From Ascidia mentula (lineage: Eukaryota > Chordata > Ascidiacea > Phlebobranchia > Ascidiidae): a stretch of 64,000 bases of DNA. Below the pieces are notes generated by a model, which did not search any database, was not told the DNA's origin, and saw only the letters and a list, made by a program, of their open reading frames with translations. Positions 36,395 to 64,000 of this stretch are shown one piece after another (the stretch's first letter is position 1; each line of letters begins with the position of its first letter). The position numbers were made by a program, and so were the translations under genes. The stretch spans positions 12,958,001 to 13,022,000 of the forward strand of contig OX387203.1 in the NCBI GenBank assembly GCA_947561715.1, read 5' to 3'.

Positions 36395-36418
36395 ATGCTT
36401 GCCTTATTCAAATAGAAT
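36395..36418 (-). ncRNA. SL RNA gene 1, interrupted by LINE 0
   Basis: Exact 16-nt leader (36403-36418), but the donor has changed to GCAAGC, and LINE 0 replaces the hairpin and Sm-like site. Confidence 0.8.
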
Positions 36419-36649
36419 GTCGACTGGTGGGAGAGGGTCGGAGCTTGGCCTGGTGGGCACTTGGAGTGGTTGGGACATCGCAAGCACGTGGAATGGCAAT
36501 TTTCAACACTGAGAGTGCAGCGGTAATTACCACGCTTGCAACGACAGAAAAGTATGTCTGACGCTGGACAGTAATTTGGCATAATGAGCACGAGCCGGCG
36601 TTGTCGACGCGGCAACGACGGCGGGGGGCCTTTGCAAACGATTAAGTAG

Positions 36650-36699
36650 TTAAAAAGTAGCCCGCACAGGGCGTGATGCTTACCTTATTCAAATAGAAT
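36650..36699 (-). ncRNA. SL RNA gene 2, intact
   Basis: Leader 36684-36699, then GTAAGCATCAC, hairpin GCCC-TGTGC-GGGC (one-base loop variant) and TACTTTTTAA as Sm-like site. The roughly 50-nt size and layout match the very short Ciona SL RNA; the exact 3' end is inferred. Confidence 0.88.
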
Positions 36700-37314
36700 G
36701 TCGACTGGTGGGAGAGGGTCGGAGCTTGGCCTGGTGGGCACTTGGAGTGGTTGGGACATCGCAAGCACGTGGAATGGCAATTTTCAACACTGAGAGTGCA
36801 GCGGTAATTACCACGCTTGCAACGACAGAAAAGTATGTCTGCCGCTGGACAGTAATTTGGCATAATGAGCACGAGCCGGCGTCGTCGACGCGGCAACGAC
36901 GGCGGGGGGCCTTTGCAAACGATTAAGTAGTTAAAAAGTAGCCCGATTCTATTTTATTCGGGCGGGCTAACAGCCGCCACCACGAATATCACACAAAATT
37001 GTTAAAGGAAAGGAGGGAAATGGGGAGAAATTCATTAGAAAGAGGGCGGAAAGTAAACAAAAGGGTACAATAATGGCGAGACGAAAAGGCACAATGAAAA
37101 AATACAGTTACAGACGCCTAAGGCGCTGCACGAAAAAATACACAAATAAGGACGACCGGAGATTACGAAAAATTATACAGTTGCAGACGACAAGGACGCT
37201 GCACGAGAAAAAAGGACAATACAATATTGGCGACAACAAAAGTACGGAACAATTTAGAGTGTTGCAGACGACAAATTTTATTTGATGTATGTGTTGGTTG
37301 CCCGGGGGATGGGT

Positions 37315-40300
37315 TTAAATTAAATATTGGACGACGTCGGCCAGGACGCTTTCGAGGTCGGCGTTTGACCTGCTCCGTTGCAAAGTAAGTCGAAAGTTCA
37401 TAGTGTGTTTCAGGGTCCGGGTCAGGTGTTGGGGTACGTTAATTAAAGGGCGGGGGTCGTGTTTAATGCGATTACGAGTCTTCCAAATGGTGTGGGTGAG
37501 GGATGTATTTAATAGAGATACAAGGGTTGAGGAGTATGGATTGTCTGACAGGGGGGTTTTAGGGAAAGTTAAATAAGTGGGGGTGTCAAAATATGTAAAG
37601 GTGTTATTAAGGAGGGAATTTAGGGTGTTTTTAACAAGGGATAAAAGTGGCTGTATAGTGGGGCAGGTATGGAAGAGGTGACTGAAGGTTTCCAGGGGGT
37701 AATTACAAAAAAGGCATTGAGGATCTAAATCGAGGGGGAGATAGGACTTCTGGCATTTCAAGGGGAGGATTTTGTGGACTAGTCTATAATTAAAGGTTTT
37801 GAGTTAATTTGGGAAGATGGGGTGGTGTATTTGTGTCCAGTCTGTATGAGTGAATGGGTGTTGGGAATCGTTTATTATGCGGGTATAAAGGGGTTTTGAT
37901 TTGGGACAAAGGAGGTCTTGTTCAGTGGGTTTGATGGTATTGATGAGGGAAAGAATATATTGGTAGTGAGTGGAGGGTGTTGTAGCGTGGGGGAGGTTAT
38001 TTCTTATTCTAAAACTGTATAAATTTGATAAGGGGAGGCCGAGGTGATATTCCAAGAGGGAGAGTTGAGGAGTTGTTGGGGTGTCCAAGATTCGGTGTTT
38101 ATAATAATTTTTTACAGTAAAGAGAAGGGAGAGATCAGCGTATAGGGGTATATTTGCCGCGCCGTAACCACCAAGGTCACGGCGGGCTGCCAAGATGTTA
38201 ATAGGCAAGGTTGGTAGGTTTGGGCCTCCGACAAAGCTTGCCACAATGCCGTCGACCCGCTCTCGTTGCTGGGGTGGTAAGGGGTAAATTTTAGCAAGGT
38301 ACGAAATTTCGGGAAGAAGGATAGTTTTTGAAAGAATGCATTTCGAATCGAAGGTGAGAAAGGGGTTGCTAATAGATTTGGCGCGGGATTGCAAAGAGGT
38401 AATTACTTGGTGCCAAGCCGCTTTTATTACTGAGGGTGCGCCGATGGGAATATTTAACGGTGTAATTTTATCCGGGTTCCACTTAATTTGATTTAAAAAG
38501 GGGTCGTCTGAGAGAGGGTGGAGGATGGCAATTGCTTCTGTTTTGGCGGGGTTCAGTTTAAGACCGGTGAATTTAGAAAATTTATTAATAAGTGACAGGG
38601 CGTTACAGAGGGACTGCCGATGCGCCACCACGAGGGTGACGTCATCGGCGTAAGCAATTGCCTTGGGAATATTGCGGCATGGCACAGGGGTCGAAATGAT
38701 AGAGGGGGTGTTTTGGAGGGCAACGAGCAACGGGTCTAAAGCAATCAGGAAGAGGTTCAGACTAAGGGGGTCTCCTTGTCTGACACCTCTCCTGATGGGA
38801 AAATCCCTTGTGGCGAAGCCATTGACGAAGACCCGGGAGTGGGCGCTGGAGTGAAGAGCAGAAAGATATTGAGTAAAGAGAGGGGGAAAGCGTTTAAGAT
38901 TTAATTGGGAGAGTAACCATGGGAAGGAAATAGAGTCAAAGGCTTTTTGGAAATCAAGAGAAACGAAAAACGAATTTGAATTAATTTGAGAAGCGTGAGA
39001 GTGTAAATCGCGAAGAAGTGTGGTTGCGTCTGAGGTAGAGGATCCGGGGGTAGCAAATTGATTGTGGGATAAAATTAAAGAAATAAAGGGCTTGATACGG
39101 AGGTTAAGGATTTTATGAAGGATTTTGAGGTCGGTATTAAGTAAAGAAATAGGGCGGTAATTGGTCAAAAGGGTGGGGTCGTTTTTCTTGTGGATAATGG
39201 TTATATGGCCGAGATTAAATTCCAATGGGGTGTAGGCGTTTTGGTAGGAGAAGTTGAGGGCTTGGGTAAGGTCGGACCCGATTAGGTCCCAGCAACGAGT
39301 ATAAAACTCGATGCTGAGCCCATCGGGCCCGGGGGTTTTGTTAGGGGAAAAGAGGGAAAGGGCTTTTTTTACTTCGGACATTGTGATGGGGGCTGAGAGG
39401 GAATCTAGGTACTGATCAGGGATTAATTTGGAAGGAAGTTGGGTAAATTGGTCACTGGGGGGCGGCAAGGGAAGTTGTTGGGATGTGTATAAGTCTGTGT
39501 AAAATTTTCGTGTATGGTCTAATATTTCCTTGGGGGTTGTTAAGGGGAGTCCGTGGGGGTCTTGAAATTCGAGAATGGGGGGTTTTCTGCGGGAAGGGAA
39601 AAGCTGGGCATAAAGGGTTTTGTCTGCTATATTTTTGAATTGGGGATCGGATGAAAGGGATTTGATGAGGGAAGAGCGGGCATTGGAAATGTAGGTATTA
39701 TTTAGGGACTTTTTGAGGGATTGGAAGTGGGCTAAGTTTTGTGGGGTTGGGTAGTCGTTTACTGTTTGGCGCGCTATTTCAAATTGCTGGTGAAGGAGGA
39801 GGGTTTCGGTGCGGTGGAGTTGAGCTAATCGTTTTGAATGGGATTGGAGGAGGGATTTAAATTTAGTTTTAAGGGTAAGCCAGAAGTCCATGGGATTTGG
39901 GTGGAAAGGTCCTAGGGTTTGCCAGAGGGGATAATGTTGGGAGAGATCATGTTGAAAGTCAGGGTCAAGGAGGGTAGATGTGTTATTCTTCCAGGAGCCT
40001 TTGCCCCTGGGAGGAGAGGAAATGATGTTGAGGGTGAGGGTAACTAAGTCGTGGTCGGAGAAGGGGCATGGAGTGAAGGTATGTTGCTTAGAGATCAATG
40101 GAGGGGAAATATAAACTCTGTCTATTCGGGATTGGGTACCAGGGGCGCGACGGGAAAATTGACAAAGGGAGGGATGAAGAGTGCGGAAGGAGTCTTGGAG
40201 GTTAAAGGTGGATAATAAATTAATCAAAGGGGGGCTAGGCCGGCGTGACTGTGCAGGGGGATATTTGTCAAGGGTGGGGTTTAAGACGCAATTAAAATCG

Positions 40301-40767
40301 CCGGCCAAAATTAAGGGGTGGGGTGAAGTTAAATAAGGGTAGAGGGAGTCAAAAAAGTTATTTCGAAGGGTAAAATTCTGGGAACCGGAGGGAGCGTAAA
40401 TATTAACTATATGGAAGGTATGGGTTAGGGTTGAGATGTCGGCCGCAATAATGCGACCGGCAGAGTCAGAAAATGAATTGAGAATTTGAAGTGTGGAGGA
40501 GTTTAGAAGAACTGCGACACCACCTTGGGCATAGCCTGTCGGAGGTGCCGAGTTTAAGAGGATGGGGCCAGAAGTCCATTCGGACTTCCACAGGGATTCG
40601 GTTTGGGGAGTAGAGTGAGTTTCTTGGAGGCAAAAAAGGTCAAAGTTCAAAGAGGAAAGGTACCGGAACAGGGCTCTTCTCTTAGGTGCCTGGCCTAGGC
40701 CGTTAACATTAAGGGTGCAAATTCGTAAAAATGACGCCATTTTATTCATAATAAACAAAATACACAA
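37315..40767 (-). pseudogene. LINE copy A ORF2 (APE endonuclease and RT) with nonsense codon
   Basis: Same layout as the intact ORF2 of copies B and C, but a TAA (FPN-stop, 37804-37806) replaces a Tyr codon about 987 codons in. The downstream C-terminal part with the Cys/His motif (CLFCNYPLETFSHLFHTCP) stays in frame to 37315. The lesion is a single substitution, so this copy died recently. The RT catalytic YADD and all endonuclease motifs lie upstream of the stop. The first ATG is 17 nt after the ORF1 stop; MASFLRIC (40740) may be the functional start. Confidence 0.88.
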
Positions 40768-40784
40768 AAGGGGGGGTGGTTTAT

Positions 40785-42539
40785 TTAATAAAAGGTTGAG
40801 TTAAAGTCATTGGGAATTCTAGCTCTACAGCTGCAGACTACGTGTTCCCCGGGCATTAAATTGTATGTGACGCCACAAGTGCAGCTTATCAGCAGGCGTT
40901 GACACTTTTTATTGGTGCAACGAGATGGGCTAAGGTAAAATTCTTCCGCAGCCCAATTGCCACAGCGACATTTAAAATGTGCTGTGTTACATAAACATTT
41001 GATTTGCTCGCCTGCATATGCTGTGTGACAGCATGACGTCTTCTTCTTGGGCGAAGGTGTTGCACTGTTCTTGCGTTTGCGGGATCTCACTGTATGGAAC
41101 CCTTCGTCATCCCGCTTTGGTTTAGGGGTCGATGACGCCATTGGTTGCGTCACTGGGACGGGAGCGTCACTGGAAACCATTTGTGTTGTAGCGGTATCAG
41201 CCAACACGGGCTGCAGGATACTGCGACGTACCGCCTCTGGTGTCTTGATGTTGTTGACAACATTGGTCGTTGGGGCGCTAGAGGGTGATTGCGCCTCTGA
41301 AGTCTTGTTGTTGTTGCTGGGAGTTGTAGCGGTGTCAGCCAACTCGGGCTGCTGCATACTGTGTTGTACCGCCTCTGGTGTCTTGGTTTCTTCGCCAACA
41401 TTGGGCGTTGGGGCGCTAGAGGTTGTAAACGCCTCTGTAGACTTCGCGCCGCTTCCCGTGACGTCAGCTGTCACGGTTGGCGGCGCATCTTCAGTGGCAA
41501 CAGCTGCCACGTCTTTCTTATTCACAGGTGTGACTTCACGTGTCACACCTGGAGTTGTGACGGCTTTATCTGCCGCTTCTGAAGCCTTCGCATTTTGCGT
41601 CGGGGCGGCCTTATCAGCTGCCTCTGAGGTCTTCGCATTTTGCGTCGGGACGGCCTTATCAGCCGCCTCTGGCGCCTTCTCGTCGAGCGTTGCAACGAGC
41701 GCACCTGCGCCCGCCAACGCCGACTCGCTCTTATCGTTGACTTGCTGCGTTTTCGCGCCTGCGTCTTTGACTGCTTTTCGCTCTTCTATATAGTTTGCGA
41801 AACTAGGGCACTCGCGTTTCACGTGGCCCATTTCGTGGCAAAAATCGCACTTTTTGGGCTGGCCTTCGTATGTCACCTCGATAGTTTTTTTGCCCAGACG
41901 CAGGCGCTCAGGAATATGGTTTTGGGCCAATACAGAGCTCTTCATGATTATGACGCGTTTGCCGCCATATACACCTTCCTCATCATACACTTTCCACCCC
42001 TTTTTGACTGGGGCGAACTTCGTCATGAAATTTAGCAAGGCTGCCATTTTAATTCGCGGGTGAACTTTCGATAGAAATACCCGAATTTCGTCGTCACAAT
42101 GGGCATTAGCGTAAACGGCTTTCCCACTGGCTCTGATGGTGGCAGCGAGCTCTTTGGCCTTTTCTGCTGCAGCGCAGTTAAAAACGACCTTTCCGTTTGG
42201 GTAGGGAATTACGCCCTCCAAAGATCGAATGCTCACTTTAAGCTGTTTTAGCAGCTTATAAAGTTCTGGCTTCTTGAGCCCAGGGTTGAAACGGGCTTCT
42301 ACATCGAGATTAGGGTCGGTTTCGAAAGGATCGACCGCTTGCACATTTCCGGCCGAAACAACAGGCCGGGAAACTAACGCTTGCGCGTAATTCATATTTT
42401 GTGCTGCCTTTTGTGCGTCTCCAACAAAATCGCACGGGCTGGCCACTGGCAGCTCACCTCTCCTTTCAAACAAAAAGCAGCCCTTAGAAGGGCTGGGCTG
42501 GCTTTGCGCAGTGGCCTCAGATAGTCTACAACAGATCAT
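40785..42539 (-). CDS. LINE copy A ORF1 (RNA-binding protein)
   Basis: 584 codons if the first ATG is used; MNYAQAL at 42395 is the alternative start, with a better AAAT-ATG-like context in other copies. From the N-terminus: basic/hydrophobic leader, RRM-like region (about 75-180), FAPVKKGWKVYDEEGVYGG, CCHC knuckle CDFCHEMGHVKREC (about 255), then a long Ala/Thr/Pro linker with repeats of EAADKA(V/A)PTQNAK. This linker is longer than in B and C by one repeat. A Cys-rich C-terminal domain follows (CCHTAYAG, CLCNTAHFKCRCGNW, CTCGV, CSCRARIP). It probably binds the LINE RNA and the target. Confidence 0.88.
   Translation of the reverse strand: MICCRLSEATAQSQPSPSKGCFLFERRGELPVASPCDFVGDAQKAAQNMNYAQALVSRPVVSAGNVQAVDPFETDPNLDVEARFNPGLKKPELYKLLKQLKVSIRSLEGVIPYPNGKVVFNCAAAEKAKELAATIRASGKAVYANAHCDDEIRVFLSKVHPRIKMAALLNFMTKFAPVKKGWKVYDEEGVYGGKRVIIMKSSVLAQNHIPERLRLGKKTIEVTYEGQPKKCDFCHEMGHVKRECPSFANYIEERKAVKDAGAKTQQVNDKSESALAGAGALVATLDEKAPEAADKAVPTQNAKTSEAADKAAPTQNAKASEAADKAVTTPGVTREVTPVNKKDVAAVATEDAPPTVTADVTGSGAKSTEAFTTSSAPTPNVGEETKTPEAVQHSMQQPELADTATTPSNNNKTSEAQSPSSAPTTNVVNNIKTPEAVRRSILQPVLADTATTQMVSSDAPVPVTQPMASSTPKPKRDDEGFHTVRSRKRKNSATPSPKKKTSCCHTAYAGEQIKCLCNTAHFKCRCGNWAAEEFYLSPSRCTNKKCQRLLISCTCGVTYNLMPGEHVVCSCRARIPNDFNSTFY
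42471..42494 (-). promoter_or_regulatory. Hairpin plus U-run in the ORF1 leader of LINE A
   Basis: On the minus strand a palindrome AGCCCTTCTAAGGGCT is followed by GCTTTTTG. The layout mimics the hairpin and Sm-like site of the SL RNA that the LINE displaced. The same element exists in copies 0, B and C; in copy 0 the loop changes but the stem is kept. Function is inferred only. Confidence 0.35.
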
Positions 42540-42642
42540 TAACCAGAAATACTAAGACGAAAACTTGTAAGACTGGCTGAAATCACTGTTTTATATAGAC
42601 TCAAATAATTTGCAATATAGCTGAATAGAGGTCAGAACACGT

Positions 42643-42666
42643 ATGCTTGCCTTATTCAAATAGAAT
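42643..42666 (-). ncRNA. SL RNA gene 3, interrupted by LINE A
   Basis: Leader 42651-42666 intact, donor GCAAGC, then LINE A. Type I promoter region. Confidence 0.8.
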
Positions 42667-42897
42667 GTCGACTGGTGGGAGAGGGGCGGAGGTTGGCCTG
42701 GTGGGCACGTTGAGTGGTTGGGACATCGCAAGCACGTGGAATGGCAATTTTCAACACTGAGAGTGCAGCGGTAATTACCACGCTTGCAACGACAGAAAAG
42801 TATGTCTGCCGCTGGACAGTAATTTGGCATAATGAGCACGAGCCGGCGTCGTCGACGCGGCAACGACGGCGGGGGGCCTTTGCAAACGATTAAGTAG

Positions 42898-42947
42898 TTA
42901 AAAAGTAGCCCGGACAGGGCGTGATGCTTACCTTATTCAAATAGAAT
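42898..42947 (-). ncRNA. SL RNA gene 4, type II
   Basis: Leader 42932-42947, donor, hairpin loop TGTCC and U-run intact. Its upstream region has one extra substitution (CAGC for CGGC). Confidence 0.88.
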
Positions 42948-43175
42948 GTCGACTGGTGGGAGAGGGGCGGAGGTTGGCCTGGTGGGCACGTTGAGTGGTT
43001 GGGACATCGCAAGCACGTGGAATGGCAATTTTCAACACTGAGAGTGCAGCGGTAATTACCACGCTTGCAACGACAGAAAAGTATGCCTGCCGCTGGACAG
43101 CAATACAGCATAATGAGCACGGGCCGACGTCGACGCGGCAACGACGGCGGGGGGCCTTTGCAAACGATTAAGTAG

Positions 43176-43225
43176 TTAAAAAGTAGCCCGGAGAGGGCGT
43201 GATGCTTACCTTATTCAAATAGAAT
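43176..43225 (-). ncRNA. SL RNA gene 5, type I
   Basis: Leader 43210-43225; hairpin loop is TCTCC, otherwise intact. Confidence 0.88.
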
Positions 43226-43456
43226 GTCGACTGGTGGGAGAGGGGCGGAGGTTGGCCTGGTGGGCACGTTGAGTGGTTGGGACATCGCAAGCACGTGGAA
43301 TGGCAATTTTCAACACTGAGAGTGCAGCGGTAATTACCACGCTTGCAACGACAGAAAAGTATGTCTGCCGCTGGACAGTAATTTGGCATAATGAGCACGA
43401 GCCGGCGTCGTCGACGCGGCAACGACGGCGGGGGGCCTTTGCAAACGATTAAGTAG

Positions 43457-43506
43457 TTAAAAAGTAGCCCGGACAGGGCGTGATGCTTACCTTATTCAAA
43501 TAGAAT
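43457..43506 (-). ncRNA. SL RNA gene 6, type I
   Basis: Leader 43491-43506; complete, 281 bp from gene 5. One E-to-K type change in the upstream region. Confidence 0.88.
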
Positions 43507-43737
43507 GTCGACTGGTGGGAGAGGGGCGGAGGTTGGCCTGGTGGGCACGTTGAGTGGTTGGGACATCGCAAGCACGTGGAATGGCAATTTTTAACACTGA
43601 GAGTGCAGCGGTAATTACCACGCTTGCAACGACAGAAAAGTATGTCTGCCGCTGGACAGTAATTTGGCATAATGAGCACGAGCCGGCGTCGTCGACGCGG
43701 CAACGACGGCGGGGGGCCTTTGCAAACGATTAAGTAG

Positions 43738-43787
43738 TTAAAAAGTAGCCCGGACAGGGCGTGATGCTTACCTTATTCAAATAGAAT
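43738..43787 (-). ncRNA. SL RNA gene 7, type II
   Basis: Leader 43772-43787; complete. Confidence 0.88.
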
Positions 43788-44015
43788 GTCGACTGGTGGG
43801 AGAGGGGCGGAGGTTGGCCTGGTGGGCACGTTGAGTGGTTGGGACATCGCAAGCACGTGGAATGGCAATTTTCAACACTGAGAGTGCAGCGGTAATTACC
43901 ACGCTTGCAACGACAGAAAAGTATGCCTGCCGCTGGACAGCAATACGGCATAATGAGCACGGGCCGACGTCGACGCGGCAACGACGGCGGGGGGCCTTTG
44001 CAAACGATTAAGTAG

Positions 44016-44065
44016 TTAAAAAGTAGCCCGGACAGGGCGTGATGCTTACCTTATTCAAATAGAAT
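44016..44065 (-). ncRNA. SL RNA gene 8, type I
   Basis: Leader 44050-44065; complete; first of three I/II dimers in a row that share the GGCACTTTG variant upstream. Confidence 0.88.
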
Positions 44066-44296
44066 GTCGACTGGTGGGAGAGGGGCGGAGGTTGGCCTGG
44101 TGGGCACTTTGAGTGGTTGGGACATCGCAAGCACGTGGAATGGCAATTTTCAACACTGAGAGTGCAGCGGTAATTACCACGCTTGCAACGACAGAAAAGT
44201 ATGTCTGCCGCTGGACAGTAATTTGGCATAATGAGCACGAGCCGGCGTCGTCGACGCGGCAACGACGGCGGGGGGCCTTTGCAAACGATTAAGTAG

Positions 44297-44346
44297 TTAA
44301 AAAGTAGCCCGGACAGGGCGTGATGCTTACCTTATTCAAATAGAAT
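44297..44346 (-). ncRNA. SL RNA gene 9, type II
   Basis: Leader 44331-44346; complete. Confidence 0.88.
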
Positions 44347-44574
44347 GTCGACTGGTGGGAGAGGGGCGGAGGTTGGCCTGGTGGGCACGTTGAGTGGTTG
44401 GGACATCGCAAGCACGTGGAATGGCAATTTTCAACACTGAGAGTGCAGCGGTAATTACCACGCTTGCAACGACAGAAAAGTATGCCTGCCGCTGGACAGC
44501 AATACGGCATAATGAGCACGGGCCGACGTCGACGCGGCAACGACGGCGGGGGGCCTTTGCAAACGATTAAGTAG

Positions 44575-53670: not shown

Positions 53671-56600
53671 TTAAATTAAATACTGGACGACGTCGGCCAA
53701 GACACCTTCGAGGTCGGCATTTGACCTGCTCCGTTGCAAAGTAAGTCGAAAGTTCATAGTGTGTTTCAGGGTCCGGATCAGGTGTTGGGGTACGTTAATT
53801 AAAGGGCGGGGGTCGTGTTTAATGCGATTCCGAGTCTTCCAAATGGTGTGGGTGAGGGATGTATTTAATAGAGCTACAAGGGTTGAGGAGTATGGATTGT
53901 CTGACAGGGGGGTTTTAGGGAAAGTTAGGTAACTGGGGGTGTCGAAATATGTAAAGGTGTTATTAAGGAGGGAATTTAGGGTGTTTTTAACAAGGGATAA
54001 AAGTGGCTGTATAGTGGGGCAGGTATGGAAGAGGTGACTGAAGGTTTCCAGGGGGTAATTGCAAAAAAGGCATTGGGGATCTAAATCGAGGGGGAGATAG
54101 GACTTCTGGCATTTCAAGGGGAGGATTTTGTGGACTAATCTGTAATTAAAGGTTTTTAGGTAATTGGGAAAGATGGGGTGATGTATTTGTGACCAGTCAG
54201 TGTGGAAAAAGGGGGGCTGGGAATCATTAATTAATCGGGTGTAGAGGGGTTTAGATTTAGGGCAGAGTAATTCTTGTTCGGAGGGTTTGATAGATGTAAT
54301 GAGGGAGAGAATGTATTGGTAGTGAGTGGAGGGTGATGTGACGTGGGGGAGGTTGTTTCGTATTCTAAGGCTGTATAAATTTGATAGGGGGAGGCCGAGG
54401 TGGTATTCCAAGAGGGAGAGTTGGGGAGTTGTTGGGGTGTCCAAGATTCGGTGTTTATAATAATTTTTTACAGTAAAGAGAAGGGAGAGATCAGCGTAGA
54501 GGGGTAGATTTGCCGCGCCGTAACCACCAAGGTCACGGCGGGCTGCCAAGGTGTTAATGGGCAATGTTGGTAGATTTGGGCCTCCGACAAAGCTTGCCAC
54601 AATGCCGTCGACCCGCTCTCGTTGCTGGGGTGGTAGGGGGTAAATTTTTGCTAAGTACGAAATTTCGGGTAAGAGTAAAGTTTTGGAGAGAATGCATTTG
54701 GAATCGAAAGTAAGAAAAGGGTTGCTAATAGATTTGGCGCGGGATTGTAAAGAATTAATTACTTGGTGCCAGGCCGCTTTAATAACTGGGGGTGCGCCGA
54801 TGGGAATATTTAACGGGGTAATTTTATTCGGGTTCCATTTAATTTGATTCAAGAGGGGGTCGTCTGAGAGAGGGTGGAGGATGGCAATTGCTTCTGTTTT
54901 ATCGGGGTTCAGTTTAAGACCGGTGAATTTAGAAAATTTATTAATAAGTGACAGGGCGTTACACAGGGACTGCCGATGCGCCACAACGAGGGTGACGTCA
55001 TCGGCGTAAGCAATTGCCTTAGGGATGTTGCGGCATGGCACAGGGGTGGAAATGATAGAGGGGGTGTTCTGGAGGGCAACGAGCAACGGGTCTAAAGCAA
55101 TCAGGAAGAGGTTCAGACTAAGGGGGTCTCCTTGTCTGACTCCTCTCCTGATGGGAAAATCCCTTGTGGCGAAGCCATTGACGAAAACCCGGGAATTGGC
55201 GGAAGAATGAAGAGCAGAAAGATATCGAGTAAAGAGAGGGGGAAAGCGTTTAAGATTTAATTGGGAGAGTAACCATGGGAAGGAAATAGAGTCGAAGGCT
55301 TTTTGGAAGTCGAGTGAAACGAAAAACGAATTTGAATTTATTGAAGAAGCGTGAGAATATAAATCGCGAAGAAGTGTGGTTGCGTCTGAGGTAGAGGATC
55401 CGGGGGTAGCAAATTGATTGTGGGAGAGTATTGAAGTGATAAAGGGCTTGATACGTAGGTTCAGGATTTTGTGGAGGATTTTGAGGTCGGTATTAAGTAA
55501 TGAGATGGGGCGGTAATTGGTCAAAAGGGTGGGGTCGTTTTTTTTATGGATGATTGTAATATGGCCTAAATTGAATTCCAAGGGGGTGTATGCGTTTTGA
55601 TAGGTGAAGTTGAGGGCTTGGGTAAGGTCGGGCCCGATTAGGTCCCAGCAACGAGTATAAAACTCGATGCTGAGCCCATCGGGCCCGGGGGTTTTGTTAG
55701 GGGAAAAGAGGGAAAGGGCTTGTTTTACTTCGGTCATTGTGATGGGGGCTGATAGGGAATCTAAATACTGATCAGGGATTAATTTGGAAGGGAGTTGGGA
55801 AAATTGGTCACTAGGGGGAGGTAAGGGAAGTTCTTGTGAAGTGTATAAGTCTGTGTAAAATTTTCGTGTATGGTCTAATATTTCCTTGGGGGTTGTTAAG
55901 GGGAGTCCGTGGGGGTCTTGAAATTCGAGAATGGGGGGTTTTCTGCGGGAAGGGAAAAGCTGGGCATAAAGGGTTTTGTCTGCTATATTTTTGAAATGGG
56001 GATCGGATGAAAGGGATTTGATGAGGGAAGAGCGGGCATTGGAAATGTAGGTATTATTTAGGGACTTTTTCAGGGATTGGAAGTGGGCTAAGTTTTGTGG
56101 GGTCGGGTAATCATTCACTTTTTGGCGGGAGGATTCGAACTGCTGGTGAAGGAGGAGGGTTTCGGTGCGGTGGAGTTGAGCTAATCGTTTTGAATGGGAT
56201 TGGAGGAGGGATTTAAATTTAGTTTTAAGGGTAAGCCAGAAGTCCATGGGATTTGGGTGGAAAGGTCCTAGGGTTTGCCAGAGGGGATAATGTTGGGAGA
56301 GATCATGTTGAAAGTCAGGGTCTAGGAGGGTGGATGTGTTATTCTTCCAGGAGCCTTTGCCCCTGGGAGGAGAGGAAATGATGTTGAGGGTGAGGGTAAC
56401 TAAGTCGTGGTCGGAGAAGGGGCATGGAGTGAAGGTATGTTGCTTAGGGATCAATGATGGGGAAATATAAACTCTATCTATTCGGGATTGGGTACCAGGG
56501 GCGCGACGGGAGAATTGACAAAGGGAGGGATGAAGAGTGCGGAAGGAGTCTTGGAGGTTAAAGGTGGATAATAAATTAATCAAAGGGGGGCTAGGCCGGC

Positions 56601-57123
56601 GTGATTGTGCAGGGGGATATTTGTCAAGGGTGGGGTTTAAGACGCAATTAAAATCGCCGGCCAAAATTAAGGGGTGGGGTGAAGTTAAATAAGGGTAGAG
56701 GGAGTCAAAAAAGTTATTTCGAAGGGTAAAATTCTGGGAACCGGAGGGAGCGTAAATATTAACTATATGGAAGGTATGGGTTAGGGTTGAGATGTCGGCC
56801 GCAATAATGCGACCGGCAGAGTCAGAAAATGAATTGAGAATTTGAAGTGTGGAGGAGTTTAGAAGAACTGCGACACCACCTTGGGCATAGCCTGTCGGAG
56901 GTGCCGAGTTTAAGAGGATGGGGCCAGAAGTCCATTCGGACTTCCACAGGGATTCGGTTTGGGGAGTAGAGTGAGTTTCTTGGAGGCAAAAAAGGTCAAA
57001 GTTCAAAGAGGAAAGGTACCGGAACAGGGCTCTTCTCTTAGGTGCCTGGCCTAGGCCGTTAACATTAAGGGTGCAAATTCGTAAAAAGGACGCCATTTTA
57101 TTCATAATAATCAAAATACACAA
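53671..57123 (-). CDS. LINE copy C ORF2: APE endonuclease and reverse transcriptase
   Basis: 1,150 codons, nearly identical to copy B, with a handful of substitutions (for example ISPSLIP for ISPPLIP, DPHFKN for DPQFKN). All catalytic motifs are present, including YADD and the CCHC-like tail. Start as in copy B; MASFLRIC is at 57096. Confidence 0.92.
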   Translation of the reverse strand: MCILIIMNKMASFLRICTLNVNGLGQAPKRRALFRYLSSLNFDLFCLQETHSTPQTESLWKSEWTSGPILLNSAPPTGYAQGGVAVLLNSSTLQILNSFSDSAGRIIAADISTLTHTFHIVNIYAPSGSQNFTLRNNFFDSLYPYLTSPHPLILAGDFNCVLNPTLDKYPPAQSRRPSPPLINLLSTFNLQDSFRTLHPSLCQFSRRAPGTQSRIDRVYISPSLIPKQHTFTPCPFSDHDLVTLTLNIISSPPRGKGSWKNNTSTLLDPDFQHDLSQHYPLWQTLGPFHPNPMDFWLTLKTKFKSLLQSHSKRLAQLHRTETLLLHQQFESSRQKVNDYPTPQNLAHFQSLKKSLNNTYISNARSSLIKSLSSDPHFKNIADKTLYAQLFPSRRKPPILEFQDPHGLPLTTPKEILDHTRKFYTDLYTSQELPLPPPSDQFSQLPSKLIPDQYLDSLSAPITMTEVKQALSLFSPNKTPGPDGLSIEFYTRCWDLIGPDLTQALNFTYQNAYTPLEFNLGHITIIHKKNDPTLLTNYRPISLLNTDLKILHKILNLRIKPFITSILSHNQFATPGSSTSDATTLLRDLYSHASSINSNSFFVSLDFQKAFDSISFPWLLSQLNLKRFPPLFTRYLSALHSSANSRVFVNGFATRDFPIRRGVRQGDPLSLNLFLIALDPLLVALQNTPSIISTPVPCRNIPKAIAYADDVTLVVAHRQSLCNALSLINKFSKFTGLKLNPDKTEAIAILHPLSDDPLLNQIKWNPNKITPLNIPIGAPPVIKAAWHQVINSLQSRAKSISNPFLTFDSKCILSKTLLLPEISYLAKIYPLPPQQRERVDGIVASFVGGPNLPTLPINTLAARRDLGGYGAANLPLYADLSLLFTVKNYYKHRILDTPTTPQLSLLEYHLGLPLSNLYSLRIRNNLPHVTSPSTHYQYILSLITSIKPSEQELLCPKSKPLYTRLINDSQPPFFHTDWSQIHHPIFPNYLKTFNYRLVHKILPLKCQKSYLPLDLDPQCLFCNYPLETFSHLFHTCPTIQPLLSLVKNTLNSLLNNTFTYFDTPSYLTFPKTPLSDNPYSSTLVALLNTSLTHTIWKTRNRIKHDPRPLINVPQHLIRTLKHTMNFRLTLQRSRSNADLEGVLADVVQYLI

Positions 57124-57140
57124 AAGGGGGGGTGGTTTAT

Positions 57141-58850
57141 TTAATAAAAGGTTGAGTTAAAGTCATTGGGGATTCTAGCTCTACAGCTGCAGACTACGTG
57201 TTCCCCGGGCATTAAATTATATGTGACGCCACAAGTGCAGCTTATCAGCAGGCGTTGACACTTTTTATTGGTGCAACGAGATGGGCTAAGGTAAAATTCT
57301 TCCGCAGCCCAATTGCCACAGCGACATTTAAAATGTGCTGTGTTGCATAAACATTTGATTTGCTCGCCTGCATATGCTGTGTGGCAGCATGACGTCTTCT
57401 TCTTGGGCGAAGGTGTTGCACTGTTCTTGCGTTTGCGGGATCTCACTGTATGGAACCCTTCGTCATCCCGCTTTGGTTTAGGGGTCGATGACGCCATTGG
57501 TTGCGTCACTGGGACGGGAGCGTCACTGGAAACCATTTGTGTTGTAGCGGTATCAGCCAACACAGGCTGCAGGATACTGCGACGTACCGCCTCTGGTGTC
57601 TTGATGTTGTTGACAACATTGAACGTTGGGGCGCTAGAGGGTGATTGCGCCTCTGATGTCTTGTTGTTGTTGCTGGGAGTTGTAGCGGTGTCAGCCAACT
57701 CGGGCTGCTGCATACTATGTTGTACCGCCTCTGGTGTCTTGGTATCTTCGCCAACATTGGGCGTTGGGGCGCTAGAGGTTGTAAGCACCTCTGTAGACTT
57801 CGCGCCGCTTCCCGTGACGTCAGCTGTCACGGTTGGCGGCGCATCTTCAGTGGCAACAGCTGCCACACCTTGCTTGTTCACAGGTGTGACTTCACGTGTC
57901 ACACCTGGAGTTGTAACGGCTTTATCTACCGCTTCTGAAGCCTTCGCATTTTGCGTCGGGACGGCCTTATCAGCCGCCTCTGGCGCCTTCTCGTCGAGCG
58001 TTGCGACGAGCGCACCTGCGCCCGCCAACGCCGACTCGCTCTTATCTTTGACTTGCTGCGTTTTCGCGCCTGCGTCTTTGACTGCTTTTCGCTCTTCTAT
58101 ATAGTTTGCGAAACTAGGGCACTCGCGTTTCACGTGGCCCATTTCGTGGCAAAAATCGCACTTTTTGGGTTGGCCTTCGTATGTCACCTCGATAGTTTTT
58201 TTGCCCAGACGCAGGCGCTCGGGAATATGGTTTTGGGCCAATACAGAGCTCTTCATGATTATGACGCGTTTGCCGCCATATACACCTTCCTCATCATACA
58301 CTTTCCACCCCTTTTTGACTGGGGCGAACTTTGTCATGAAATTTAGCAAGGCTGCCATTTTAATTCGCGGGTGAACTTTAGATAGAAACACCCGAATTTC
58401 GTCGTCACAATGGGCATTAGCGTAAACTGCTTTCCCACTGGCTCTGATGGTGGCAGCGAGCTCTTTGGCCTTTTCTGCTGCCGCGCAGTTAAAAACGACC
58501 TTTCCGTTTGGATAGGGAATTACGCCCTCCAAAGATCGAATGCTCACTTTAAGCTGTTTTAGCAACTTGTAAAGCTCTGGCTTCTTGAGCCCTGGATTGA
58601 AACGGGCTTCAACATCCAAATTAGGGTCGGTATCGAAAGGATCGACCGCTTGCACATTTCCGGCCGAAACAACAGGCCGGGAAGCTAACGCTTGCGCGTA
58701 ATTCATAATTTTCTCTGCCTTTTGTGCGTCTCCAACAAATTCGCACGGGCTGGCCACTGGCAGCTCACCTCTCCTTTCAAACAAAAAGCAGCCCTTAGAA
58801 GGGCTGGGCTGGCTTTGCGCAGTGGCCTCAGATAGTCTACAACAGATCAT
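57141..58850 (-). CDS. LINE copy C ORF1 (RNA-binding protein)
   Basis: 569 codons; one Asn shorter than copy B in the Asn run of the linker, otherwise almost the same. It has the RRM-like region, CCHC knuckle and Cys-rich tail. It ends 17 nt before the first ORF2 ATG. Confidence 0.9.
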   Translation of the reverse strand: MICCRLSEATAQSQPSPSKGCFLFERRGELPVASPCEFVGDAQKAEKIMNYAQALASRPVVSAGNVQAVDPFDTDPNLDVEARFNPGLKKPELYKLLKQLKVSIRSLEGVIPYPNGKVVFNCAAAEKAKELAATIRASGKAVYANAHCDDEIRVFLSKVHPRIKMAALLNFMTKFAPVKKGWKVYDEEGVYGGKRVIIMKSSVLAQNHIPERLRLGKKTIEVTYEGQPKKCDFCHEMGHVKRECPSFANYIEERKAVKDAGAKTQQVKDKSESALAGAGALVATLDEKAPEAADKAVPTQNAKASEAVDKAVTTPGVTREVTPVNKQGVAAVATEDAPPTVTADVTGSGAKSTEVLTTSSAPTPNVGEDTKTPEAVQHSMQQPELADTATTPSNNNKTSEAQSPSSAPTFNVVNNIKTPEAVRRSILQPVLADTATTQMVSSDAPVPVTQPMASSTPKPKRDDEGFHTVRSRKRKNSATPSPKKKTSCCHTAYAGEQIKCLCNTAHFKCRCGNWAAEEFYLSPSRCTNKKCQRLLISCTCGVTYNLMPGEHVVCSCRARIPNDFNSTFY

Positions 58851-58941
58851 TAACCAGAAAAACTAAGACGAAAACTTGTAAAACTGGCCGAATTCACTGC
58901 TTTATATAGACTTAAATAATTTCCAATAAAGTAACTCAGGT

Positions 58942-58968
58942 GTGATGCTTACTGTGTTCAAATAGAAT
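58942..58968 (-). ncRNA. SL RNA gene 21, interrupted by LINE C and mutated
   Basis: The leader has decayed to ATTCTATTTGAACACA (58953-58968); LINE C replaces the rest. Not functional. Confidence 0.75.
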
Positions 58969-59199
58969 GTCGACTGGTGGGAGAGGGGCGGAGGTTGGCC
59001 TGGTGGGCACGTTGAGTGGTTGGGACATCGCAAGCACGTGGAATGGCAATTTTCAACACTGAGAGTGCAGCGGTAATTACCACGCTTGCAACGACAGAAA
59101 AGTATGTCTGCCGCTGGACAGTAATTTGGCATAATGAGCACGAGCCGGCGTCGTCGACGCGGCAACGACGGCGGGGGGCCTTTGCAAACGATTAAGTAG

Positions 59200-59249
59200 T
59201 TAAAAAGTAGCCCGGACAGGGCGTGATGCTTACCTTATTCAAATAGAAT
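59200..59249 (-). ncRNA. SL RNA gene 22, type I
   Basis: Leader 59234-59249; complete. Confidence 0.88.
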
Positions 59250-59865
59250 GTCGACTGGTGGGAGAGGGGCGGAGGTTGGCCTGGTGGGCACGTTGAGTGG
59301 TTGGGACATCGCAAGCACGTGGAATGGCAATTTTCAACACTGAGAGTGCAGCGGTAATTACCACGCTTGCAACGACAGAAAAGTATGTCTGCCGCTGGAC
59401 AGTAATTTGGCATAATGAGCACGAGCCGGCGTCGTCGACGCGGCAACGACGGCGGGGGGCCTTTGCAAACGATTAAGTAGTTAAAAAGTAGCCCAATTCT
59501 ATTTTATTCGGGCGGGCTAACAGCCGCCACCACGAATATCACACAAAATTGTTAAAGGAAAGGAGGGAAATGGGGAGAAATTCATTAGAAAGAGGGCGGA
59601 TAGTAAACAAAAGGGTACAGTAATGGCGAGACGAAAAGGCACAATGAAAAAATACAGTTACAGACGCCTAAGGCGCTGCACGAAAGAATACACAAATAAG
59701 GACGACCGGAAATTACGAAAAATTATACAGTTGCAGACGACAAGGACGCTGCACGAGAAAAAAAAGACAATACACTATTGGGGACGACAAAAGTACGGAA
59801 TAATTCAGAGTGTTGCAGACGACAAATTTTATATGATGTATGTGTTGGTTGCCCGGGGGATGGGT

Positions 59866-62800
59866 TTAAATTAAATACTGGACGACGTCGGCCAAGACAC
59901 CTTCGAGGTCGGCATTTGACCTGCTCCGTTGTAAAGTGAGTCGAAAGTTCATAGTGTGTTTCAGGGTCCGGATCAGGTGTTGGGGTACGTTAATTAAAGG
60001 GCGGGGGTCGTGTTTAATGCGATTGCGAGTCTTCCAAATGGTGTGGGTGAGGGATGTATTTAACAGAGCTACAAGGGTTGAGGAGTATGGGTTGTCTGAC
60101 AGGGGGGTTTTAGGGAAAGTTAGATAACTGGGGGTGTCGAAATATGTGAAAGTGTTGTTGAGTAGGGAGTTGAGGGTGTTTTTAACAAGGGATAGAATGG
60201 GTTGTATCGCGGGACAGGTATGAAAAAGGTGGCTAAAGGTTTCCAGGGGGTAATTGCAAAGATGGCATTGGGGGTCTAAATCTAGGGGAAGGTAGGACTT
60301 CTGACATTTCAGGGGGAGGATTTTGTGTACTAATCTATAGTTAAAGGTTTTGAGGTAATTGGGAAAGATGGGGTGATGAATTTGGGACCAGTCGGTGTGG
60401 AAAAAGGGGTGCTGGGAATCATTTATTAATCTGGTGTAAAGGGGTTTGGATTTGGGACAAAGCAGTTCTTGTTCAGAGGGACTAAAGGAATTGATCAGGG
60501 AGAGAATATGTTGATAGTGAGTGGAGGGTGTTGTGGCGTGGGGGAGGTTATTTCTTAGTCTGAGGCTGTATAAATTTGATAGGGGGAGGCCGAGATTATA
60601 TTCCAAGAGGGAGAGTTGGGGGGTTGTTGGGGTGTCCAAGATTCGTTGTTTGTAGTAATTTTTGACAGAAAAGAGAATGGATAGGTCAGCATAGAGGGGT
60701 AGATTTGCCGCGCCGTAACCACCAAGGTCACGGCGGGCTGCCAAGATGTTAATAGGCAAGGTTGGTAGGTTTGGGCCTCCGACAAAGCTTGCCACAATGC
60801 CGTCGACCCGCTCTCGTTGCTGGGGTGGTAAGGGGTAAATTTTAGCAAGGTACGAAATTTCGGGAAGAAGGATAGTTTTTGAAAGAATGCATTTCGAATC
60901 GAAGGTGAGAAAGGGGTTGCTAATAGATTTGGCGCGGGATTGTAAAGAGGTAATTACTTGGCGCCAAGCCGCTTTTATTACTGAGGGTGCGCCGATGGGA
61001 ATATTTAACGGTGTAATTTTATCCGGGTTCCACTTAATTTGATTTAAAAAGGGGTCGTCTGAGAGAGGGTGGAGGATGGCAATTGCTTCTGTTTTGGCGG
61101 GGTTCAGTTTAAGACCGGTGAATTTAGAAAATTTATTAATAAGTGACAGGGCGTTACAGAGGGACTGCCGATGCGCCACCACGAGGGTGACGTCATCGGC
61201 GTAAGCAATTGCCTTGGGAATATTGCGGCATGGCACAGGGGTCGAAATGATAGAGGGGGTGTTTTGGAGGGCAACGAGTAACGGGTCTAAAGCAATCAGG
61301 AAGAGGTTCAGACTAAGGGGGTCTCCTTGTCTGACACCTCTCCTGATGGGAAAATCCCTTGTGGCGAAGCCATTGACGAAGACCCGGGAGTGGGCGCTGG
61401 AGTGAAGAGCAGAAAGATATTGAGTAAAGAGAGGGGGAAAGCGTTTAAGATTTAATTGGGAGAGTAACCACGGGAAGGAAATAGAGTCAAATGCTTTTTG
61501 GAAATCAAGAGAAACGAAAAACGAATTTGAATTAATTTGAGAAGCATGAGTGTATAAATCGCGAAGAAGTGTGGTTGCGTCTGAGGTAGAGGATCCGGGG
61601 GTAGCAAATTGATTGTGGAATAAAATTAAGGAAATAAAGGGCTTGATACGGAGGTTAAGGATTTTATGAAGGATTTTGAGGTCGGTATTAAGTAAAGAAA
61701 TAGGGCGGTAATTGGTCAAAAGGGTGGGGTCGTTTTTCTTATGAATAATTGTTATATGGCCGAGATTAAATTCCAATGGGGTATAGGCGTTTTGGTAGGA
61801 GAAGTTAAGGGCTTGGGTAAGGTCGAACCCGATTAGGTCCCAGCAACGAGTATAAAACTCGATGCTGAGCCCATCGGGCCCGGGGGTTTTGTTAGGGGAA
61901 AAGAGGGAAAGGGCTTTTTTTACTTCGGACATTGTGATGGGGGCTGAGAGGGAATCTAGGTACTGATCAGGGATTAATTTGGAAGGAAGTTGGGCAAATT
62001 CGTCACTGGGGGGCGGCAAGGGAAGTTGTTGGGATGTGTATAAGTCTGTGTAAAATTTGCGGGTGTGTTCTAATATTTCCTTGGGGGTTGTTAGGGGGAG
62101 TCCATGGGGGTCTTGAAATTCGAGGATGGGGGGTTTGCGACGTGAAGGGAAAAGCTGGGAATAGAGAGTTTTATCGGCTATGTTTTTGAATTGGGGATCG
62201 GAGGAGAGGGATTTAATAAGTGAGGAGCGGGCATTGGAAAGGTATGTATTATTTAGGGACTTTTTGAGGGATTGGAAATGGGCTAAGTTTTGTGGGGTCG
62301 GGTAATCATTCACTTTTTGGCGGGAGGATTCGAACTGCTGGTGAAGGCGGAGGGTTTCGGTGCGGTGGAGTTGAGCTAAACGTTTTGAATGGGATTGGAG
62401 GAGGGATTTAAATTTAGTTTTAAGGGTAAGCCAGAAGTCCATGGGATTGGGGTGAAAGGGACCTAAGGTTTGCCAGAGGGGATAATGTTGGGAGAGATCT
62501 ATTTGGAAGTCAGGGTCAAGGAGGGTAGATGTGTTATTCTTCCAGGAGCCTTTGCCCCTGGGAGGAGAGGAAATGATGTTGAGGGTGAGGGTAACTAAAT
62601 CATGGTCGGAGAAGGGGCATGGAGTAAAGGTATGTTGCTTAGGGATCAATGGAGGGGAAATATAAACTCTGTCTATTCGGGATTGGGTACCAGGGGCGCG
62701 ACGGGAGAATTGGCAAAGGGAGGGATAAAGAGCACGAAAGGAGTCTTGGAGGTTGAAGGTGGATAATAAATTAATTAAAGGGGGGCTGGGCCGGCGTGAT

Positions 62801-63280
62801 TGAACAGGGGGATATTTATCGAGGGTTGGGTTTAGGACGCAATTAAAATCGCCGGCCAGAATTAAGGGGTGGGGTGAAGTTAAATAAGGGTAGAGGGAGT
62901 CAAAGAAATTATTGCGTAGGGTTATTTTATCAGCTCCAGAGGGGGCGTAAACGTTAACTAAATGGAAGGTATGGGTTAGGGTTGAGATGTCGGCCGCAAT
63001 AATGCGACCGGCAGAGTCAGAAAATGAATTGAGAATTTGAAGTGTGGAGGAGTTTAGAAGAACTGCGACACCACCTTGGGCATAGCCTGTCGGAGGTGCC
63101 GAGTTTAAGAGGATGGGGCCAGAAGTCCATTCGGACTTCCACAGGGATTCGGTTTGGGGAGTAGAGTGAGTTTCTTGGAGGCAAAAAAGGTCAAAGTTCA
63201 AAGAGGAAAGGTACCGGAACAGGGCTCTTCTCTTAGGTGCTAAGGGTGCAAATTTTCAAAAAGGACGCCATTGTATTCAT
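59866..63280 (-). pseudogene. LINE copy D ORF2, start region deleted
   Basis: The frame is open from about 63201 to 59866, but a roughly 20-nt deletion near 63240 shifts the original MASFLKICTL start into a stop. It also removes the NVNGLG motif with the catalytic Asn of the endonuclease. RT motifs and the C-terminal tail are intact. The central RT region resembles copy A (DPFLNQIKWNPD, HSSAHSRVF); the C-terminal part resembles B and C, so this copy is mosaic. Confidence 0.88.
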
Positions 63281-63336
63281 AAAGAAAACACAAAAACAAA
63301 AATGGGTGGCAATAATTGGAGGGTGGCTTATTCAAT

Positions 63337-64000
63337 TCAATAAAATGTTGAATTAAAATCGTTGGGGATTATAACTTTACAATTACAAACTATTTTCTCC
63401 CCGGGCATTAGATTGTACGTGACGCCACAAGTGCAGCTTATCAGCAGGCGTTGACACTTTTTATTTGTGCAACGTGAAGGGCTAAGGTAGGCTTCTTCCG
63501 CAGCCCAATTGCCACAGCGACATTGAAAATGTGCTGTGCCACATAAACATTTCATATCCTTGCCTGCATATGCTGTGTGGCAGCATGATGTCTTCTTTGG
63601 GGGTGAAGGCGTTGCGCTGTTCTTTCGTTTGCGGGATCGTACCGTGGTAAACCCTTCGTTGTCCCGCTTGGTTGGTTTTGGTGTGGATGACGCCATTGGA
63701 TGGTTGGGTGCATCAATTGAAACAATTGACGTTGGGGCGGTGTCAGCCAACACGGGCTGCAGGATACTGCGACGTACCGCCTCTGGTGTCTTGTTTTGTT
63801 TGTCAACATTGGACGGTGGGGCGCTAGATGGTGATTGCGCCTCTGAAGTCTTGTTGTTGTTGGAAGTTGTAGCGGTGTTAGCCAACTCGGGCTGCTGCAT
63901 ACTGTGGTGTCCCGCCTCTGGTGTCTTCTTTTCTTCGCCAACATTGGGCGTTGGGGCGCTAGAGGTTGTAAGCGCCTCTGTAGACTTCGCGCCGCTTCCC
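63337..64000 (-). CDS. LINE copy D ORF1, C-terminal part
   Basis: Last 187 or more codons before the window edge. Linker with SSAPPSNVDKQNKTPEAVRR, then SRKRKNSATPSPPKKTSCCH and the Cys-rich domain (CLCGTAHFQCRCGNW). More divergent than A, B and C are from one another, and its 3' flank before ORF2 also differs. Confidence 0.85.
   Translation of the reverse strand, partial: GSGAKSTEALTTSSAPTPNVGEEKKTPEAGHHSMQQPELANTATTSNNNKTSEAQSPSSAPPSNVDKQNKTPEAVRRSILQPVLADTAPTSIVSIDAPNHPMASSTPKPTKRDNEGFTTVRSRKRKNSATPSPPKKTSCCHTAYAGKDMKCLCGTAHFQCRCGNWAAEEAYLSPSRCTNKKCQRLLISCTCGVTYNLMPGEKIVCNCKVIIPNDFNSTFY

What the first reader, a model, noticed from the sequence alone, without database searches (positions are those of the whole stretch)
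36395..64000. APE-type LINE inserted repeatedly at one site in spliced-leader RNA genes of a tunicate
Every 3' end of copies A-D (36945, 46828, 53300, 59495) joins the SL unit at exactly the same base, before GGGCTACTTTTT, i.e. in the 3' arm of the SL RNA hairpin. All copies have the SL orientation, and the 5' ends stop at GCAT or GCATCAC of an SL unit, so about 9-12 bp of target are missing. SL-gene-specific LINEs known to me (SLACS, CZAR, NeSL-1) use a restriction-like endonuclease. This one has an apurinic-type endonuclease, ORF1 with a CCHC knuckle, and Tx1/L1-like RT wording. Tx1-group elements are known to target snRNA, tRNA and other repeated RNA genes, so an SL RNA target would be a new specificity in chordates.
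Basis: partly seen in the sequence, partly recalled or inferred. Interest (0 to 1): 0.97.

Follow-up and report, generated by a model that had tools for sequence, protein, structure and literature searches.

The report
LINE parasite of sea-squirt SL genes
A sea squirt carries jumping genes that insert at one exact spot inside its spliced-leader RNA genes and that keep the front end of that RNA, with its splice site altered, as their own front end.

Summary
Confirmed and extended. The window fits chromosome 7 of the ascidian Ascidia mentula. Its SL RNA gene array is interrupted by full-length LINEs with an apurinic-type endonuclease and an L1-group RT. Genome-wide, 23 of 27 tails of this type (A) join SL genes, all 23 at the same base (before +37 of the SL RNA). 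They lie in two arrays with different spacers. They are not one insertion multiplied with the array: both arrays and dispersed copies intermix in the tree, and ORF2 dN/dS between copies is 0.08-0.18. Two further lineages (B, poly-A, mostly dispersed; C) hit the same hairpin at +31/+32.

The SL piece at the 5' end belongs to the element: copies far from SL genes, flanked by 12-688 bp target duplications, still begin at or within about three bases of SL +1. No leader read keeps the normal splice donor (0 of 45). Likely mechanism: transcription from the SL promoter, an RNA starting at SL +1, TPRT into the SL hairpin, 5' joining by SL homology. Nine paper searches showed no earlier report. Promoter use and RNA start are inferred, not shown.

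The parts
36945..42666 (-). LINE copy A, full length including the SL-derived 5' leader; ORF2 open for 987 codons only, against 1149-1150 in B and C
46828..52498 (-). LINE copy B, full length; ORF1 570 aa and ORF2 1149 aa open
53300..58968 (-). LINE copy C, full length; ORF1 569 aa and ORF2 1150 aa open; 99.15% identical to B but with a different leader
59495..64000 (-). LINE copy D, runs off the window end (its leader is at G000:C71:13023193-13023220); 90.5-92% identical to A-C
35407..36418 (-). Remnant LINE: 5' leader and part of ORF1 only, about 87% identical to copies A and C; the 3' part is missing at the array edge
36395..36418 (-). SL-derived leader of the remnant, ATTCTATTTGAATAAGGCAAGCAT (donor GT to GC)
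42643..42666 (-). SL-derived leader of copy A, ATTCTATTTGAATAAGGCAAGCAT (donor GT to GC)
52470..52498 (-). SL-derived leader of copy B, AATAAGTAAGC form (read here as a target/element hybrid)
58939..58968 (-). SL-derived leader of copy C, AACACAGTAAGC form
36947..36990 (-). 3' terminal hairpin and tail of copy A (TATTCG...CGAATAAAATAGAA); same element at 46830-46873, 53302-53345, 59497-59540
36419..36944 (-). SL RNA gene array segment, 1 SL gene matching the 24-base pattern
42667..46827 (-). SL RNA gene array segment, 14 SL genes matching the pattern, about 281-bp units
52499..53299 (-). SL RNA gene array segment, 2 SL genes matching the pattern
58969..59494 (-). SL RNA gene array segment, 1 SL gene matching the pattern
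53671..57123 (-). ORF2 of copy C: Exo_endo_phos endonuclease, RVT_1, zf-RVT
57141..58850 (-). ORF1 of copy C: CCHC knuckle below the curated cut-off (E 0.025); cysteine-rich C terminus seen by eye
47200..50649 (-). ORF2 of copy B
50669..52381 (-). ORF1 of copy B (no Pfam family at E 0.001)
40785..42539 (-). ORF1 of copy A
59866..63201 (-). ORF2 of copy D (1111 aa open)

Best explanation
This is a site-specific APE-type LINE of the L1 group that lives in the SL RNA genes of an ascidian. Shown: it has inserted at one base in the loop of the SL RNA terminal hairpin, again and again, in two different arrays; its own 5' end is the first 24-30 bases of the SL RNA, with the splice-donor junction altered; and the same leader sits at the 5' end of dispersed copies. 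Inferred: a copy in the array is transcribed from the SL gene's promoter, so its RNA starts at SL +1. The altered donor keeps the head of this RNA from being spliced away onto other mRNAs. ORF2 nicks the SL hairpin DNA and reverse transcribes from the conserved 3' hairpin of the LINE RNA. The leader at the cDNA's end then pairs with the SL sequence of the target, so the 5' joint falls in register and the new copy again sits exactly behind an SL promoter.
For: Fixed 3' junction: 23 of 27 type-A tails in SL genes, 23 of 23 at +37. Two array types: 281-bp units on C71 and 720-bp units with two SL genes on C1. The leader is element-borne: a query without the leader gave 40 scored hits (of 85 candidates) and 38 of 40 have it; 0 genomic SL units carry the GC donor against 1428 GT. 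The 33 leaders read in SL arrays are all in register behind the array promoter. Dispersed copies with target duplications begin at SL +1 or within about three bases of it: 7 of 11 pairs tested gave duplications, of 12, 20, 39, 77, 164-210, 373 and 688 bp, the last two implied from 327 and 329 aligned bases. 5' homology joining: L078 and L125 keep the target's SLb base (ATTCTGTTTGAA) followed by the element's altered leader; B and C, 99.15% identical, have different leaders. Repeated retrotransposition: arrays and dispersed copies intermix in the tree, with at least 6 changes forced by starred branches; ORF2 dN/dS 0.08-0.18. Altered donor in 45 of 45 leaders, in several forms. 3' hairpin in 16 of 20 distinct tail versions, covering all three lineages. 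Enzymes.
Against: No RNA data were examined, so promoter use, RNA 5' end, cap and splicing are inferred. Specificity is not absolute: 4 of 27 type-A and 18 of 22 type-B tails are elsewhere. In 15 of the 18 C71 type-A joints the base before GGGC is T, where the 18 SL genes of the window all have C; this is unexplained. GC donors and donors such as ACA|GTAAGC can be weakly functional (recalled), so the protective role of the change is a guess. Some array copies are duplicates (L022/L023; L033/L034/L035). L100 and L104 lie in the C1 array span and have no leader. Three of the 11 dispersed pairs gave no duplication and one had no tail in the stretch read.
Confidence: 0.8

Rival explanations
1. One or few insertions were multiplied with the SL units by array amplification, unequal exchange or conversion, so the shared junction is inherited rather than re-made.
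For: Arrays do expand; L022/L023 and L033/L034/L035 share identical or near-identical LINE and 100% identical flank.
Against: Two arrays with different spacers and both array orientations are hit. C71, C1 and dispersed copies intermix in the tree. ORF2 dN/dS 0.08-0.18 between copies A-D of one array, with dS up to 0.31. Near-identical B and C differ in leader. Three lineages hit the same hairpin, types A and C being only 70% identical in ORF2.
Confidence: 0.05
2. The SL at the 5' end comes from ordinary SL trans-splicing of the LINE mRNA before reverse transcription.
For: The species has a Ciona-type SL; in Ciona the SL is spliced to at least 58% of expressed genes (PMC7986045 passage).
Against: Leaders continue 8-14 bases into the SL RNA intron (GCAAGCAT, or GTAAGCATCACACC against GTAAGCATCACGCC), which trans-splicing would remove; leaders are altered in a lineage-specific way.
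Confidence: 0.05
3. The element has its own internal promoter that starts at its first base; the SL-like leader is kept only because it must pair with the target at the 5' joint.
For: Many LINEs have internal promoters (recalled). Dispersed type-B copies outnumber array ones (18 of 22 tails), and the type-B tree is too poorly resolved to say which are the sources.
Against: The 33 array leaders read sit exactly behind an SL promoter. The 4 dispersed type-A copies in the tree each attach to array copies and none to one another, as expected if array copies are the sources.
Confidence: 0.2
4. A non-specific LINE simply accumulates in SL arrays because insertions there are tolerated.
For: Type B is mostly dispersed (18 of 22), so an ancestor may have been unspecific.
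Against: Tolerance would scatter insertions over the 281- or 720-bp units; the SL junctions read are at one base (type A, 23 of 23) or one step (types B and C, 8 of 8).
Confidence: 0.02

Closest known systems
CRE-clade SL elements of trypanosomatids (SLACS, CZAR, CRE1/2)
   Same: Insert at one relative position in SL RNA genes (PMC12278014 passages).
   Different: They carry a restriction-like endonuclease; this one has an apurinic-type endonuclease and lies in the L1 group.
NeSL elements of nematodes (NeSL/Utopia lineage)
   Same: Target spliced-leader genes (PMC4640811 passages).
   Different: RLE class (same passages); not APE, not L1 group.
Tx1-clade target-specific LINEs (Keno in U2, Mutsu in 5S, Dewa at the tRNA-Leu spacer, in zebrafish)
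   Same: APE endonuclease and multicopy small-RNA targets (PMC3706591 and PMC4640811 passages; that all three belong to Tx1 is recalled).
   Different: None of the passages read names an SL RNA target for them; an SL-derived leader is not mentioned there.
R2 in 28S rRNA genes
   Same: Site-specific, uses the target's promoter, and upstream target sequence in its RNA helps the 5' joint (recalled, no call).
   Different: RLE class; R2 is not known to me to carry a diverged target-derived leader to dispersed sites (recalled).
Phallusia mammillata pol-like protein A0A6F9DMX7
   Same: Best protein hit, 63% identity over 99%.
   Different: No genomic context available here, so its target is unknown.

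Membership tests
APE-type LINE | Apurinic-type endonuclease and RT in one ORF | tested here: met
   Exo_endo_phos E 2e-17, RVT_1 E 2e-32; N20, E49, D157, N159, D238, H239 and RT D708-D709 invariant in 13 aligned proteins (their roles recalled)
APE-type LINE | Target-primed copies flanked by target duplications | tested here: met
   7 of 11 dispersed 5'/3' pairs show duplications of 12-688 bp; 3 show none, 1 had no tail in the stretch
L1 group (L1 and Tx1 clades) | RT/EN nearest L1 ORF2p | tested here: met
   8uw3 E 1.5e-65 over 12-897, against 1.6e-20 for 8gh6 and 7.8e-18 for the first chain named R2; among 52 chains within E 1 none is named R1Bm or TRAS endonuclease, but 2v0s 'LR1' and 2v0r 'LTX' are there (recalled as engineered L1 endonucleases)
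L1 clade proper | Groups with mammalian L1 in an RT tree | tested here: not met
   In a 39-row tree chosen from 191 proteins held, Equus L1 lies in a 9-row vertebrate clade (96/85); the window protein lies in a separate 28-row group (98/92)
Tx1 clade | RT groups with named Tx1 elements | not testable with these tools
   No protein labelled Tx1 was among the hits listed (the second lists 120 of 207)
SL-specific RLE LINEs (CRE, NeSL) | Restriction-like endonuclease, no APE | tested here: not met
   APE domain present
Site-specific LINE of SL RNA genes | Copies joined to SL genes at one base | tested here: met
   23 of 27 type-A tails in SL genes, 23 of 23 at +37

The most novel reading that the evidence does not exclude
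The element's RNA is a hijacked SL RNA. It is started and capped as an SL RNA by the SL promoter, and its splice donor has been altered in several ways so that the leader stays on. The mRNA thus looks like a trans-spliced mRNA without trans-splicing, and the same leader steers the 5' end of each new insert back behind an SL promoter. Promoter, leader and 5' joining then all rest on one 24-30-nt piece of host RNA.
Probability: 0.5. Interest if true: 0.9.

Novelty: new variant of a known kind. Interest (0 to 1): 0.8.

Why it matters
The SL-specific LINEs that I know of use a restriction-like endonuclease; here an APE-type, L1-group element hits the SL RNA hairpin in a chordate, so SL genes have been colonised by two different enzyme classes. 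The element-borne, splice-altered SL leader gives a concrete, testable model of how a LINE keeps its promoter and how 5' joints are made. Three lineages in one genome (poly-A and mostly dispersed; without poly-A and in SL genes) allow the step between dispersed and site-specific insertion to be studied. The same leader can be followed in RNA data that already exist for the species.

Tried and rejected
Array amplification of one insertion: rejected. Trans-splicing as source of the leader: rejected because the leader extends into the SL intron. Rfam on one stretch of each array type: no family matched at E 0.1; in the window Rfam found only a tRNA at gathering thresholds. A scan of viral contigs for the protein confirmed no relative. 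A search of the own genome with the whole ORF2 protein did not complete. Placement in Tx1: no labelled reference was obtained. ORF1 gives only sub-threshold matches. A tree of type-B 3' ends (20 of 22 tails, 126-260 bases) has little resolution. No protein structure prediction was run. Rows not counted: 6 of the 33 hits lie outside the 27 tails (L026, L027, L028 and L038 read and diverged or without tail; C1:7604537 and C71:15389221 not read); one broken pair of hits at C71:13944838-13945400 (91%) is left out of the 27; L116, L144 and L145, L137 and L138 held no tail or leader where I had looked for one. Literature: searches listed no report of a LINE in tunicate SL genes; subscription papers and Repbase are not held, so this is weak evidence of absence. 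Papers: passages only of PMC4640811, PMC3706591, PMC4122922, PMC6836712, PMC12278014, PMC7986045, PMC13188248 and PMC11109543; PMC312621 is not held; the others were seen as listings with the start of the abstract.
Full report
Source. The window is G000:C71:12958001-13022000 of a 195.8-Mb, 79-contig assembly. Its COX1 has 5 TGA codons inside and reads through under the ascidian mitochondrial code; it is 90% identical to Phallusia and about 80% to the next ascidians. So the host is very probably A. mentula (family Ascidiidae) and the window lies on its chromosome 7.

The target. On the minus strand, 281-bp units carry ATTCTATTTGAATAAG|GTAAGCATCACGCCCTGTCCGGGCTACTTTTT. The first 16 bases are the known Ciona SL (PMC7986045 passage). 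The window holds 18 SL genes matching 24 bases exactly and the genome 1428 exact matches to 31 bases. A second array type lies on C1: 720-bp units with two SL genes, SLa and a variant SLb (ATTCTG...), and a different spacer. Counting SL +1 as the first A, GCCC (28-31) and GGGC (37-40) pair around a 5-base loop (predicted for three units).

The element. Copies A-D and a remnant lie on the minus strand. ORF2 (1149-1150 aa in B and C) has Exo_endo_phos, RVT_1 and zf-RVT domains. By sequence, solved structures rank L1 ORF2p first (E 1.5e-65) and R2-like chains far behind (1.6e-20 and weaker). In an RT tree of 39 chosen rows the window protein, the type-C protein and Phallusia A0A6F9DMX7 form a supported clade (100/99) outside the clade with mammalian L1. 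That fits Tx1 (recalled), but no labelled Tx1 protein was among the listed hits. ORF1 shows a sub-threshold CCHC knuckle.

3' junctions. A pattern for the tail (up to 2 mismatches) hits 27 places; 17 of these copies match the window's 3' end over about 300 bases at 93-100%, the other 10 only over the last 43-50. 23 of 27 join SL genes, each with two bases between AGAA and GGGC, that is before +37; 4 are elsewhere (C1 5.4 Mb, C52 1.6 Mb, C52 9.7 Mb, C69 17.8 Mb). An RT-region DNA query agrees: 27 full-length hits at 90% or more, of which 22 are copies whose SL junction was read, one (C1:15427179) lies in the array span with its junction unread, and 4 are the dispersed ones; the next full-length hits fall to 77-78% (40 of 156 candidates were scored there, so counts are lower bounds). 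A second lineage, type B, ends in poly-A. 22 tails were found and all 22 flanks were read: 4 in SL genes, on both array types, all at +31/+32; 18 elsewhere. A third, type C (ORF2 70% identical), was read at four 3' ends, all in SL genes at +31/+32, each with one base differing from the unit; there was no genome-wide census of type C.

5' ends. I queried the genome with 343 bases that exclude the SL piece; 40 of 85 candidates were scored and their 5' flanks read. 38 of 40 carry an SL-derived leader; L100 and L104, both in the C1 array span, do not. With 7 more loci found by a leader pattern, 45 of 47 have one. 33 are in SL arrays, and in all 33 the leader sits in register behind the array promoter. 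12 are elsewhere and still carry it: 7 with the full ATTCT start, 3 with the first base different, 1 shorter (C69) and 1 diverged (L105). The leader runs 24 (type A) to about 30 bases (other forms) into the SL RNA, past the splice donor, which excludes trans-splicing as its source.

Target duplications. Of 11 dispersed 5'/3' pairs, 7 show direct repeats: 12, 20, 39, 77, 164-210 (with an indel), 373 and 688 bp, the last two implied from 327 and 329 aligned bases (325 and 318 identical); 3 show none; 1 had no tail in the stretch read. These copies begin at SL +1 or within about three bases of it. Long, variable duplications mean that in a periodic array the in-register 5' joint could be either a replacement of SL +1 to +36 or a duplication of most of a unit; the sequence cannot tell.

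The altered donor. None of 45 leaders keeps AATAAG|GTAAGC. The forms are GGCAAGC, ACACAGTAAGC (with AAACAG variants), AATAAGTAAGC and GAAAAGTAAGC. The GC form joined to the rest of a true SL unit occurs 0 times in the genome. The leader therefore belongs to the element; that the change protects the RNA from splicing is inference.

5' joining by homology. L078 and L125 sit in SLb-type units and keep SLb's G at +6, followed by the element's altered leader. Copies B and C are 99.15% identical, yet B has AATAAG, as in the target, joined to the element's TAAGC, while C has ACACAG. Both point to joints made inside the SL homology, and to B and C being separate insertions.

Repeated insertion. In a tree of the last 1.5 kb of all 27 type-A copies, C71, C1 and dispersed copies intermix (8 changes for the C71 label, at least 6 forced by starred branches). 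ORF2 dN/dS is 0.18 (B-C), 0.08-0.09 (B-D, C-D) and 0.12-0.13 (A-B, A-C, A-D), and 0.16-0.18 against type C, where dS exceeds 1, so divergence built up under selection on working proteins. Array duplication does occur: L022/L023 and L033/L034/L035 have 100% identical flanks.

3' hairpin. The terminal 39-52 bases of all three lineages were folded: 16 of 20 distinct versions form a hairpin with TATTCG/CGAATA-type pairing at its base, though loops and upper stems differ; L028, L038, L117 and L136 fold differently or only partly. It is the natural candidate for recognition by the RT; that is inference.

Against my reading. No RNA evidence was examined. Type B is mostly dispersed. In 15 of 18 C71 type-A joints the base before GGGC is T, where the 18 window units have C; RNA carried over from C1 sources, whose SLa units have T there, could explain it but this was not tested. 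The protective role of the donor change is unproven.

Literature. Passages read name SL targets only for RLE elements (PMC4640811, PMC12278014) and U2, 5S and tRNA-spacer targets for Keno, Mutsu and Dewa (PMC3706591). Searches listed no report of a LINE in tunicate SL genes. Repbase and most subscription papers were not searchable.

Verdict. A real, well-supported new variant: an APE-type, L1-group LINE specific for SL RNA genes, with an element-borne, splice-altered SL leader.

Noticed in passing
L001 (G000:C1:15238151-15241181): The chromosome-1 SL array has 720-bp units with two SL genes; the second (SLb) has ATTCTGTTTGAATAAG as its leader, a possible second SL of the species.
   Followed up: partly
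   Followed up: partly
G000:C71 type-A 3' junctions: 15 of 18 C71 copies have T at the base before GGGC where the units in the window have C; may reflect RNA carried over from chromosome-1 source copies.
   Followed up: no
window 10647-16448: 1933-aa open frame with Pao peptidase A17 and integrase domains and a sub-threshold RT match: looks like a BEL/Pao-type LTR retrotransposon.
   Followed up: no
window 41185-41444, 51069-51324, 57541-57793, 63737-63987: ORF1 holds imperfect tandem repeats of 135-141 bp, and copy A also a 45-bp repeat array (41559-41679).
   Followed up: no
window 35407-36418: Broken LINE copy that has its 5' part but lacks its 3' part at the array edge, the reverse of ordinary 5' truncation; suggests a rearrangement at the array border.
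   Followed up: partly
L100 and L104 (G000:C1 16.018 Mb, 15.215 Mb): 5' ends of LINE copies fused to what looks by eye like LINE ORF2 sequence instead of a leader; possibly nested or recombined copies inside the array.
   Followed up: no
window 30132-30205: tRNA gene on the minus strand.
   Followed up: no
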